The notes under the pieces: generated by a model
What the model was told of the DNA's origin: nothing
Seen by the model: only the letters and a program-made list of their open reading frames with translations
Databases searched by the model: none
Shown here: piece by piece, positions 27,223 to 41,399 of the stretch
How the letters are laid out: each line of letters starts with the position of its first letter
Numbering within the stretch: position 1 is the first letter of the stretch
Position numbers and translations under genes: made by a program
Source: an uncultured Verrucomicrobiota bacterium
Lineage (GTDB): Bacteria > Verrucomicrobiota > Verrucomicrobiia > Limisphaerales > UBA9464
Assembly (NCBI GenBank): GCA_903910585.1
Contig: CAIWAH010000190.1
Span: forward strand, 1-64,000
Direction: 5' to 3'
DNA: 64,000 nucleotides

Positions 27223-27412
27223 CGGCAAAGCGGGATCAAACCCGCGTCGGAAACGCTACAGACTTCGACGCCCGGCGCGAGCTTTGAGCGAGCGTAAATA
27301 GCCTTCGCCCTTCAATTGCCCCCAAACCGCTGGCTCTGTCATCAGGCAAAGTCTATTTCCCGAAGACCCCTACAAATAACTGCAAACACGTCCCCGCCTA
27401 GGGCGTGGGTTG

Positions 27413-30106
27413 TCAACCCCTTGTCAAACCAACAGTTTGTGTCTTAAATTCAAAGCCAGCCTCCTTACCAAAGAAATAGAGGGTCCCACGGAGCAGTTGC
27501 CGAAGGCCGTTCTCGGGCTTTTCTGAGTCAGATCGAACTTCCGTCGTGGTCAGCTCATCCAACAGGAATGCTTCGCCGGTTGCCCTTCGGATGGTAGCCC
27601 TGCTGTTTTTGCCGGTGTGGATTCTGTCGCCGTCCTGCAAGACCATGTCGGTTACGGCTGGGTCAGCCGTAGCTGACTGCTTTCGCTGCACCCGCACGTC
27701 CCCCTGGATAGCGACTACGGTTACATTCCCCAGTGACATGCTTACTTTCGAGCCTATATCTCCGCCCTTGGTCAGGGGCACGTTGACCTCAAATGGCAGC
27801 CCCGCCCTGACGGATGCCTGAACGGTCTGGGCCGCGAACCCATCCTTCACGAGTGTCAGGGCGACTGGTCGGGGTCGGACAAAATAGCTCGCGTAGGGCG
27901 TCACTCCCCATTCCTTGCCCTCCACGGAGATTTTCGCCCCCGGTGGCTCACTCGTGACGATCAGGATTCCCAGCCGGTGGCTGATCGTATAGGAGGTCGC
28001 GGCGATCGCCAGGATCAACCCGGCCAGAATGCCCCCGGCCCAGCCCACCCGGATCAAGGTCCACCGTTGCAGTGATGCGCGGACATACCGGGCCAGCGGC
28101 TGGTTATCCTCGCCGCCAAACCTCGCGGCCTGTCTAAGAAACTGGCGGCCTTCATCCAGCTTGAGCCCGTGGGGCAGCAGCAGCGTGCGGCGGTGTTTCC
28201 TGTCGGCGTTGGACCACCGCTGGCAGTCCCGTTCCAGATTGGCGCGCAGCCGCAGGAAATCGTGGTGCTCGCGGATCCAGCCGGCCAGCCGGGGCCACGC
28301 GTGGAAAAGGATCTCATGGGCCAGCGCCACGGTGGAATGGCCTTCCTGTTCATGGGCCGTAAGCAGCCGTTCCCGGATGAGGCTTTCCACGAGGGCTTTC
28401 TTTTCCGGCGTGTCCGTGAGGACGCTGGTTTGCGCGTGGCGGCGGACCACGCGGTCTTCCGGGCCGGAACTCACCGCCACCAGCGCCGGCGCGATCTGTT
28501 CAAACACCTTTTGAACCTCCGGCGACAGGCCGAAAAAAACGGCCTCCGCCCGCCGCCCGAGGGCGCCCTCCACACCGCCCATCTGCCGGTAGCTGGCAAA
28601 GGTGAGCGTTCGGCCTCCGTTGCGCCGGTCGTAGAGTTCGCGCAGAGCATCTTCAATCAGGGGCAGCGCATCGCCCAGTTTCTGGGCGTCATCCAGCAGT
28701 TCCTCATCGAGCGGTTTACGGCCGCCTTCCGGCCGTTCAAAATGCAACCCCGCCCGCCGGGCCGGTCCGCTGATGAGCCGTTGAACGGCTGACGCACCCG
28801 GCGGGGACAGGTCCACCTGGCCGGTCGCACCCTTGAGTCGCAGGAACGTCCTTGAGGATTGGGCAATGGGGTAAAAATCACTCCGCAGCGTGGCCAGAAC
28901 CCAGACTCCCCCGGAGCGGGCGAGACTTTCCACTGCCCGGAGAAACACCTCCCTTTCTGCGTCGGACAGGCGGCTGTCGGTGTAGAGTTCCTCCAGTTGA
29001 TCAAGAATGAGAAGGATCCGCACCGGGCCGCCGACCGTCCCCGCGGCGTCCGCCAGGGCCGCCTTCAGCGCCAGCCCGGTCGCGGTTTCCGGAGCCGTTT
29101 GGAACGTTTCTGCGAGCGTGTCGTTCTCACCGCTTCGGTTTCGCAGTTCCTTCAGGGCTGCCTCTAGGCTCCGGACTAGGCCGTGGATCAGCCGTCCTTG
29201 GCTTTGCGCGGGGGTAAAGATGGCGCAACGCCACTGGCGGACCGTGTCGTCAAGGTTTTGCCGAAGCAGTTCCGACGCGACGCCCGCCCGGGCCAGTGAC
29301 GACTTGCCGGACCCTGACGGACCGACAATGACTGCAAAGGCGCAGTGTTCTTCCGTCGCCCGCCGGCGCAGCAAGGTCTCGATCCCGAGTGTTTCCTCTT
29401 CCCGGCCAAAGAATATCGGCGCGTGCGCGACGTCAAAAACCTGCAGGCCCCGATAAGGGGCATCGCTCCACATCTCCAGCGGGCTGTTGCTTTCACCCAG
29501 CCGATCTTCCAGCAATTCTCGGAGGTGTGCCTTGAGGCGTTGGGCAAAGGTTACCGGCTCGCGATAAGAGTGGTAGGCGCGGAGGTTGCGCCCCTGCTCA
29601 TCGTGGAAGCGTTCTCGGACGAACTGTTCAGCCAGTCCCCGCTGCCGAATCATCTCGCCCAGCGCATCGGTCCCCTTGGGATGCTCCCCGCCCATGCGTT
29701 TTAGAAACCCATCCGGATCGTCGCGGCAATAGGCCAGAATCTGGGGACGCTTCCCTTGAGACTGCGCCCGGGCCATGAGCATCAGGTCGAACTCCCTTTC
29801 CGTGCCCGAACGGTAATGCGACCCATCGGGTTTCCGTGTGGCACCTCCGACAACCGAACCGAGGCGTGACCACAGGATGAAGATGGCGATGTCCATGCCG
29901 TTCTGCTCGGAGAGCACCAGGTCAATGCCCTCCTGGAACGAAGTGTCAGCCTGCAACGGCAGGTCTTCCCATAGCACCGCTTGAAGGGTGAGCCGTTCCC
30001 CATACCAGCGGCCGAGCAACTCCACTACCTGCCGGGCCTTGGCGCGCTCCTCCGCCACATCACCCGGACTTGAGATGAAGATTCGTATTGTCTCGGGGGA
30101 TTTCAC
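27413..30106 (-). CDS. DUF4062-STAND NTPase with membrane helix, PEGA and FecR-like domains
   Basis: An 897-residue protein. Residues 1-205 form a DUF4062/TIR-like module (RIFISSPGDVAEERAKARQV, DIAIFILWSRLGSVVG). From about 215 a novel-STAND (nSTAND1) NTPase begins: PYRGLQVFDVAHAPIFFGRE, Walker A VGPSGSGKSSLARAGV, Walker B RILLILDQLEELYTD, sensor LATLRSDFY. A helical part follows, then one membrane helix near 690 (GGILAGLILAIAATSYTI), a PEGA domain (LIVTSEPPGAKISVEGKEWG) and a FecR-like domain (VTVVAIQGDVRVQRK, LLRGTLYFFGKEAGFEFKTQ). The protein ends at TVGLTRG, just where FecR domains have RGTxF, so the domain is cut short. The predicted topology puts PEGA and FecR outside the cytoplasm and the STAND module inside. 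DNA here is visibly less GC-rich than its neighbours, which suggests transfer. A defence or envelope-signalling role is inferred. Confidence 0.8.
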   Translation of the reverse strand: MKSPETIRIFISSPGDVAEERAKARQVVELLGRWYGERLTLQAVLWEDLPLQADTSFQEGIDLVLSEQNGMDIAIFILWSRLGSVVGGATRKPDGSHYRSGTEREFDLMLMARAQSQGKRPQILAYCRDDPDGFLKRMGGEHPKGTDALGEMIRQRGLAEQFVRERFHDEQGRNLRAYHSYREPVTFAQRLKAHLRELLEDRLGESNSPLEMWSDAPYRGLQVFDVAHAPIFFGREEETLGIETLLRRRATEEHCAFAVIVGPSGSGKSSLARAGVASELLRQNLDDTVRQWRCAIFTPAQSQGRLIHGLVRSLEAALKELRNRSGENDTLAETFQTAPETATGLALKAALADAAGTVGGPVRILLILDQLEELYTDSRLSDAEREVFLRAVESLARSGGVWVLATLRSDFYPIAQSSRTFLRLKGATGQVDLSPPGASAVQRLISGPARRAGLHFERPEGGRKPLDEELLDDAQKLGDALPLIEDALRELYDRRNGGRTLTFASYRQMGGVEGALGRRAEAVFFGLSPEVQKVFEQIAPALVAVSSGPEDRVVRRHAQTSVLTDTPEKKALVESLIRERLLTAHEQEGHSTVALAHEILFHAWPRLAGWIREHHDFLRLRANLERDCQRWSNADRKHRRTLLLPHGLKLDEGRQFLRQAARFGGEDNQPLARYVRASLQRWTLIRVGWAGGILAGLILAIAATSYTISHRLGILIVTSEPPGAKISVEGKEWGVTPYASYFVRPRPVALTLVKDGFAAQTVQASVRAGLPFEVNVPLTKGGDIGSKVSMSLGNVTVVAIQGDVRVQRKQSATADPAVTDMVLQDGDRIHTGKNSRATIRRATGEAFLLDELTTTEVRSDSEKPENGLRQLLRGTLYFFGKEAGFEFKTQTVGLTRG

Positions 30107-30300: not shown

Positions 30301-30324
30301 GGCGGAGCGGCAGCTCCGCCCTAC
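30301..30324. repeat. REP-type hairpin (GTAG-headed on the minus strand)
   Basis: GGCGGAGC-ggca-GCTCCGCC is a perfect 8-bp stem followed by CTAC, so on the minus strand it reads GTAG then the stem, like the other palindromes of the window. It lies 11 bases beyond the stop of the oxidoreductase gene. Bases 30107-30300 show no gene. Confidence 0.6.
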
Positions 30325-30334
30325 CAGTGATTGC

Positions 30335-31773: not shown

Positions 31774-31850
31774 TGGTGCATCCGTGAAGAGTCGAACTTC
31801 AAACCTGCTGATCCGTAGTCAGCTGCTCTATCCAATTGAGCTACGGATGC
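31774..31850 (-). tRNA. tRNA-Arg (anticodon ACG)
   Basis: The minus strand reads GCATCCG (acceptor), D-arm GCTCAATTGGATAGAGC, anticodon stem GCTGA/TCAGC with loop CTACGGA (anticodon ACG), T-arm TGAAG-TTCGACT-CTTCA, acceptor CGGATGC, discriminator A and an encoded CCA. All stems pair perfectly. A34 is expected to be deaminated to inosine to read CGU, CGC and CGA. Confidence 0.95.
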
Positions 31851-40808: not shown

Positions 40809-41399
40809 ATGAAACCACACCATTCGCCCATGCCTGAGCCGAAAACCCGCTGGCCTCACGCACCGCCGCACATCCTCGGTGCGGCGGGAACCTACTTCGT
40901 CACTGCGGGCACCTACCTGCGCCAGCACCACTTTCGGGGACCGGAACGTCTCGCGATTCTTCACCGCGGCCTCCTGTCGGTTGCCGCCGAGTTCGGGTGG
41001 CAGTTGGAAGCGTGGGCGGTCTTCTCCAACCATTACCACTTCGTTGGTCACTCGCCTCCCTCTGTAGAACAAGCTGAATCGCTGCGAGTCATGCTGGGAA
41101 AACTTCACGGCAAGCTATCCGCCTGGGTGAACCGGCTGGATTCAACCGCCGGCCGGAAAGTCTGGCACAACTTCCGGGAGACCCGGTTGACCTTTGATCA
41201 GTCCTTTCGCGCCCGCCTGAATTACGTCCATCAGAACGCGGTTCACCACGGACTGGTGCCCGTGGCCAATCAATACCCTTGGTGCAGCGCGGGGTGGTTC
41301 GAACGCACGGCCACTCCAGCTCAAGTGAAAACGATCTACGGGTTCAAGACCGACCACCTTGAGGTCTATGATGCCTACTCGCCAACACCGGAATGGTGA
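40809..41399 (+). CDS. REP-associated tyrosine transposase (RAYT, Y1 family)
   Basis: A 196-residue transposase. The HUH metal site is HYH in WAVFSNHYHFVGHS, and the catalytic Tyr lies in ARLNYVHQNAVHHGLV. Further family features are AGTYFVTAGTYLRQHHFRG and KVWHNFRETRLTFDQSF. RAYTs cut and join single-stranded REP hairpins and are single-copy domesticated relatives of IS200/IS605. The gene is bracketed by two 105-bp palindromic repeats, 26 bases before the start and 3 bases after the stop, the usual setting for a RAYT and its REPs. It appears intact. Confidence 0.9.
   Translation: MKPHHSPMPEPKTRWPHAPPHILGAAGTYFVTAGTYLRQHHFRGPERLAILHRGLLSVAAEFGWQLEAWAVFSNHYHFVGHSPPSVEQAESLRVMLGKLHGKLSAWVNRLDSTAGRKVWHNFRETRLTFDQSFRARLNYVHQNAVHHGLVPVANQYPWCSAGWFERTATPAQVKTIYGFKTDHLEVYDAYSPTPEW

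What the first reader, a model, noticed from the sequence alone, without database searches (positions are those of the whole stretch)
27413..30106. DUF4062-STAND-TM-PEGA-FecR protein: an unusual membrane-spanning STAND architecture
Seen: one 897-residue protein joins an N-terminal FISSPGD module, a complete P-loop STAND NTPase, one membrane helix, a PEGA domain and a FecR-like domain that ends at its RG motif. Known: STAND NTPases with DUF4062/TIR-like ends are common in bacterial defence and signalling, and PEGA and FecR occur in envelope sensing. Inference: the outer domains could sense an envelope event and trigger the inner NTPase, or the reverse. It stands alone in lower-GC DNA, which suggests mobility.
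Basis: partly seen in the sequence, partly recalled or inferred. Interest (0 to 1): 0.65.

Follow-up and report, generated by a model that had tools for sequence, protein, structure and literature searches.

The report
Membrane-anchored TIR-like STAND receptor
This bacterial gene encodes a membrane-anchored alarm protein, with a probable NAD-destroying domain and an ATP-driven switch inside the cell and a swapped-in, partly missing sensor outside; the anchored layout turns out to be the rule in its family, and only the outer part is unusual.

Summary
The 897-aa ORF is real and in one frame: DUF4062/TIR-like domain (1-216), nSTAND1 NTPase (217-638), membrane helix (684-702), PEGA (713-780) and a FecR domain that stops at its RG motif. 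All 58 aligned N-terminal domains match Pfam DUF4062 and keep one glutamate (E105), which aligns with the catalytic Glu of human TEP1 (numbering inferred). 49 of 57 long relatives have a hydrophobic helix at the same place, with the N-terminal side predicted inside. What varies is the part after the helix: WD40, TPR, Sel1, HEAT, FGE-sulfatase or nothing recognised. PEGA-FecR was found only here. The FecR domain is truncated: relatives carry about 50 more residues, and no remnant lies downstream in any frame. Best explanation: an outside-in STAND receptor whose oligomerisation activates a TIR-like NADase, probably for defence. A 2026 preprint shows DUF4062 proteins to be NADases in phage defence and in TEP1 (DUF4062-NACHT-WD40). 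No clear defence gene lies next to it here. NADase activity, topology and ligand are untested, and the clipped sensor may be non-functional.

The parts
27413..30106 (-). Whole gene, 897 aa, GTG start, TGA stop
   Evidence: Open frame; single copy in own genome
30110..30116 (-). Shine-Dalgarno-like GAGGAGG, 3 nt before the GTG
   Evidence: Sequence
29495..30094 (-). N-terminal DUF4062/TIR-like domain, residues 5-204
   Evidence: 58/58 members match PF13271; AlphaFold pLDDT 91.7; TIR and nucleoside deoxyribosyltransferase folds lead the PDB second look, Z 9-11.6; only PDB sequence hit is the TEP1 TIR, 11gz
29792..29794 (-). Codon of E105, predicted catalytic glutamate at the start of helix alpha-C
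   Evidence: Invariant in 58 sequences; helix 101-115 after strand 73-78; aligned to TEP1 chain position 115, inferred to be E1008
28193..29458 (-). nSTAND1 NTPase, residues 217-638
   Evidence: PF20703 E 6.6e-87; invariant motifs in alignment A1
29300..29323 (-). Walker A GPSGSGKS, residues 262-269
   Evidence: G262, S264, G265, G267, K268, S269 invariant
28001..28057 (-). Membrane helix, residues 684-702, Arg-rich on its N-terminal side
   Evidence: Hydropathy; conserved position in 49 of 57 relatives
27767..27970 (-). PEGA domain, residues 713-780
   Evidence: PF08308 E 3e-8, 34 bits vs cut-off 20.8
27416..27721 (-). Truncated FecR domain, residues 796-897, ends at ...GLTRG before the TEF of the family motif
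   Evidence: Relatives' profile E 8.6e-22, positions 2-97 of 147; 19/19 relatives continue; GC 54.8%

Best explanation
It is a membrane-anchored STAND receptor of a modular bacterial family: [TIR-like DUF4062 effector]-[nSTAND1 switch]-[membrane helix]-[exchangeable outer module]. Most likely mechanism: at rest the nSTAND1 module holds the TIR-like domains apart. An event felt by the C-terminal module outside the inner membrane (here PEGA, probably touching peptidoglycan, plus what is left of a FecR domain) lets the STAND exchange nucleotide and oligomerise. This brings the TIR-like domains together so that E105 hydrolyses NAD+, stopping growth or killing the cell, most plausibly as abortive defence. 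Shown here by computation: domain order, TIR-like fold, invariant glutamate, intact NTPase motifs, conserved helix position, swapped C-termini, FecR truncation. Inferred: topology, oligomerisation, NADase activity, direction of signalling, defence role. In this copy the outer module was probably acquired by domain swap and is clipped, so its ligand range may be changed or lost.
For: Core architecture: Pfam nSTAND1 and PEGA, DUF4062 in 58/58. TIR-like model at pLDDT 91.7; SPARTA TIR-APAZ, RPP1, AbTir and TIR-STING lead the structural second look, together with deoxyribosyltransferases. E105 invariant in 58 sequences, aligned to the second E of TEMEV in the TEP1 TIR chain; if that 220-residue chain ends at 1113, as the construct does, this is E1008, needed for TEP1 NADase activity (PMC13174449). 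The preprint shows NADase phage defence for bacterial DUF4062 (Swarozyc) and proposes an APAF-1-like WD40-NACHT-TIR mechanism for TEP1. Helix conserved in 49/57, versus 9 of 285 upstream background slices, with K/R excess on its N-terminal side in 47/49. C-terminal modules swap: at least 12 changes among 23 members on the core tree (domains). PEGA behind a membrane segment is described in other conflict systems (PMC7159879).
Against: No clear defence gene beside it: of 10 neighbours only one partial PADLOC hit (52 residues of a 438-position candidate model). No NADase, defence or topology assay. Human NWD1, NWD2 and NPHP3, which have DUF4062 next to a STAND module, showed no NADase activity in the preprint, so architecture does not ensure activity. 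The FecR end models poorly (pLDDT 41-46 over the last 38 residues).
Confidence: 0.55

Rival explanations
1. Decaying chimera: the core came by transfer, recombination replaced its sensor with a piece of a FecR protein, and the break left an unfolded tail. The gene no longer works as a receptor.
For: FecR lacks about a third of its profile with no downstream remnant; GC of that part 54.8%, lowest 0.3% of window slices; poor model of the tail; no relative has this architecture.
Against: All 897 codons are open; effector and NTPase residues that are invariant in the family are all intact; a good ribosome-binding site remains.
Confidence: 0.2
2. The PEGA part only tethers the protein to the cell wall; sensing is cytoplasmic through nSTAND1 or a partner, as in cytosolic Avs proteins.
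For: PEGA domains in membrane-associated conflict systems were called peptidoglycan-associating (PMC7159879); the outer module is short (about 190 aa) next to WD40 or TPR relatives.
Against: The outer module is the part that varies most in the family, as expected of a sensor; STAND sensors usually lie C-terminal.
Confidence: 0.15
3. The N-terminal domain is not an NAD-depleting executioner but a nucleotide-processing or signal-making enzyme (deoxyribosyltransferase or hydrolase type) in envelope-stress signalling.
For: RCL/DNPH1 and other nucleoside deoxyribosyltransferases score about as well as TIRs (Z 9-11); neighbours are metabolic or regulatory genes, not defence genes.
Against: The only PDB sequence hit is the TEP1 NADase domain; the bacterial DUF4062 protein tested depletes NAD+ (PMC13174449).
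Confidence: 0.1

Closest known systems
Human TEP1 (DUF4062-NACHT-WD40; also NWD1, NWD2, NPHP3), PMC13174449
   Same: DUF4062 TIR-like domain directly before a STAND NTPase, then a C-terminal sensor; WD40 in many close relatives of this gene; the catalytic Glu position aligns
   Different: TEP1 has NACHT rather than nSTAND1 and sits in the vault; the preprint describes no membrane helix, PEGA or FecR
Swarozyc (KpSwz) DUF4062 antiphage system, PMC13174449
   Same: TIR-like DUF4062 domain with a required Glu (E97 there), C-terminal auxiliary sensor
   Different: No STAND module or membrane helix described; its auxiliary domain is a winged fold that binds phage portal
nSTAND1 conflict proteins with TIR/DRHyd effectors and FGS, WD40 or lectin ends (PMC8195603, PMC10907252)
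   Same: Effector-nSTAND1-variable sensor order; some relatives here end in FGE-sulfatase (FGS) domains
   Different: The passages read do not describe a DUF4062-nSTAND1-helix layout with PEGA-FecR
Avs antiviral STANDs
   Same: Tripartite effector-STAND-sensor logic
   Different: No Avs model matches; this protein has a membrane helix and a non-repeat end

Membership tests
DUF4062 TIR-like domain family | Match to Pfam PF13271 | tested here: met
   58/58 aligned members match; window itself 23.2 bits, E 8e-5, slightly under the 24.7-bit curated cut-off; the close relative L059 is above it
DUF4062 TIR-like domain family | TIR-like alpha/beta fold | tested here: met
   pLDDT 91.7 model; TIR structures lead with Z 9-11.6 over about 140 residues. 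Plain Foldseek ranking was uninformative
DUF4062 TIR-like domain family | Conserved catalytic Glu | tested here: met
   E105 invariant in 58, aligned with the inferred TEP1 E1008
DUF4062 TIR-like NADases | NAD+ hydrolysis | not testable with these tools
   Needs an enzyme assay
nSTAND1 STAND NTPases | Profile match with Walker A and other NTPase motifs | tested here: met
   293 bits over positions 1-378 of 379; motifs invariant
PEGA domain | Match to PF08308 above cut-off | tested here: met
   34 bits vs 20.8
FecR (PF04773) | Complete domain, incl. the GTEF...DG strand region | tested here: not met
   Matches only 1-56 of 97 Pfam positions and 2-97 of 147 of a local profile; homologous but truncated
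Swarozyc | Winged portal-binding auxiliary domain | not tested
   No KpSwz sequence was compared; the C-terminus here is PEGA-FecR
Avs antiviral STAND | Match to PADLOC Avs models | tested here: not met
   No Avs model among hits at E up to 1
Defence island resident | Known defence genes among neighbours | tested here: not met
   10 neighbours: one partial hit only

The most novel reading that the evidence does not exclude
DUF4062-nSTAND1 proteins form a broad class of bacterial single-pass membrane receptors, architectural cousins of human TEP1, that read the envelope through exchangeable outer modules and fire an NADase inside; this gene carries a PEGA-FecR module so far seen nowhere else in the class.
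Probability: 0.4. Interest if true: 0.65.

Novelty: new variant of a known kind. Interest (0 to 1): 0.45.

Why it matters
Characterised antiviral STAND proteins sense phage parts in the cytoplasm. A widespread family with the same logic but a conserved membrane helix would put the sensor outside, where adsorption, wall damage or DNA injection occur, and it shares the effector-STAND-WD40 order of human TEP1, whose role in the vault is still open. The invariant glutamate and simple layout make that directly testable.

Tried and rejected
First genome-contig scan with the single sequence found nothing; the N-terminal alignment found 220 relatives, of which the best 80 were kept. Frameshift or assembly join as the cause of the short FecR: rejected, no FecR remnant in any frame of the 3' flank and no second copy of that DNA in the genome. 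Plain Foldseek ranking of the N-terminal model gave unrelated alpha/beta proteins; only the second look sorted TIRs to the top. A search for other PEGA-FecR ends in 388 genomes of the phylum and in plasmids found only FecR proteins or nothing. Integration signs: no flanking direct repeats of note; the tRNA-Arg at 31774-31850 is separated from the gene by an oxidoreductase gene. The C-terminal model was too poor for a fold search. PEGA could not be aligned reliably with L005. Paper searches for PEGA with FecR found nothing relevant.

Full report
Observation. The gene at 27413-30106 (-) is a single open frame of 897 codons with a GTG start behind GAGGAGG. Pfam gives nSTAND1 at 217-638 (E 6.6e-87) and PEGA at 713-780 (E 3e-8). 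One hydrophobic helix lies at 684-702.

The N-terminal domain is TIR-like. A model from 57 sequences has pLDDT 91.7. Plain Foldseek ranking was uninformative, but the structural second look put SPARTA TIR-APAZ, RPP1, AbTir and TIR-STING near the top with Z 9-11.6, mixed with nucleoside deoxyribosyltransferases. The family profile hits one PDB sequence, the TIR domain of human TEP1, 11gz (E 5e-4). Invariant residues include F10, S12, S13, P14, D16, E20, R21, W46, W79, R81, G83, G101, T102 and E105. E105 lies at the start of the helix that follows the third strand, where TIR enzymes keep their catalytic Glu (established knowledge of TIRs; position). In the TEP1 alignment it pairs with chain position 115. 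The chain has 220 residues; if it ends at 1113, as the construct in the preprint does, that is E1008, the residue needed for TEP1 NADase activity (the numbering is my inference).

The architecture is a family trait. Relatives come from Verrucomicrobiota, Planctomycetota, Bacteroidota, Pseudomonadota, Chloroflexota and others. Of 57 long ones, 49 have a hydrophobic helix at 641-760, against 9 of 285 slices of the same length upstream, and in 47 of the 49 K/R are more frequent on the N-terminal side. So the TIR-like and STAND parts are predicted inside and the rest outside.

The C-terminal module is what changes. Close relatives end in WD40 (L062/L027, L063, L064, L069, L073 and others), FGE-sulfatase (L072, L082), TPR (L066, L075), Sel1 (L080), HEAT (L061, L081) or nothing recognised. 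On a tree of the core, at least 12 changes of module are needed among 23 proteins (several forks weakly supported). None of the other 77 proteins compared, some of them fragments, has PEGA of this type or FecR, and 388 genomes of the phylum gave no second such end.

The FecR part is incomplete. All 19 aligned relatives, including ones in the same genome, run on through (R/L)GTEF and about 45-50 more residues; this protein stops at RG. In Pfam terms it has positions 1-56 of 97, while two intact relatives have 1-97. No FecR remnant exists downstream in any frame. The FecR part has GC 54.8%, within the lowest 0.3% of equal slices of the window, while the STAND part has 65.2%. I read this as a recombined, clipped module. 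Whether it still works is open; its last 38 residues model poorly.

Context. The genome is a draft assembly (411 contigs), and its close core relatives L027/L062 and L028/L064 are labelled Verrucomicrobia subdivision 3 (now Limisphaerales) and Verrucomicrobiia. The core is absent at close similarity from 34 same-genus and same-family genomes and found at about 50% identity in 2 other genomes of 320 in the order, which fits horizontal spread. Neighbours are an oxidoreductase, a weak UPF0158-like protein, a LysR regulator, DUF3016 and an Rce1-like protease; none is a clear defence gene. No flanking repeats suggest a recent insertion.

Mechanism. The best reading is a single-pass STAND receptor: an outer module senses an envelope event, nSTAND1 oligomerises, and the TIR-like domains deplete NAD+. 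The steps after the anatomy are inferred. Support comes from the 2026 preprint on DUF4062 NADases (Swarozyc and TEP1; PMC13174449), from nSTAND1 conflict proteins with TIR/DRHyd effectors and FGS ends (PMC8195603) and from PEGA domains behind membrane segments in conflict systems (PMC7159879). Main cautions: three of four human proteins with DUF4062 next to a STAND module showed no NADase activity in that preprint, and the sensor here is clipped.

Verdict. Real, correctly read, a new variant of a known kind. The more general point, that DUF4062-nSTAND1 proteins are usually membrane-anchored with exchangeable outer modules, is more interesting than this single gene.

Noticed in passing
L087-L093 (Bacteroidota relatives): A Bacteroidota branch of the same family has several hydrophobic helices after the STAND core instead of one.
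   Followed up: no
L061, L081: HEAT-ended relatives lack the helix at the usual place but have at least five hydrophobic segments nearer the C-terminus, so membrane anchoring may have arisen more than once.
   Followed up: no
window 30301-30325: A 25-nt GC-rich palindromic stretch upstream of the gene recurs once elsewhere in the genome (C252) at 96%; may be a REP-like repeat.
   Followed up: no
window 40809-41399: ORF that from its sequence looks like a REP-associated (Y1-type) transposase; not tested against Pfam.
   Followed up: no
window 27380-27450: The stop codon lies among short palindromes (CAAACTGTTGGTTTG, GGGTTGACAACCC) just where the FecR domain is cut; may mark the break or act as a terminator.
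   Followed up: partly
L002, L019 and other FecR loci: FecR relatives in this order sit in long open frames (mostly about 1150-1280 codons); two examined are FecR followed by TPR repeats.
   Followed up: partly
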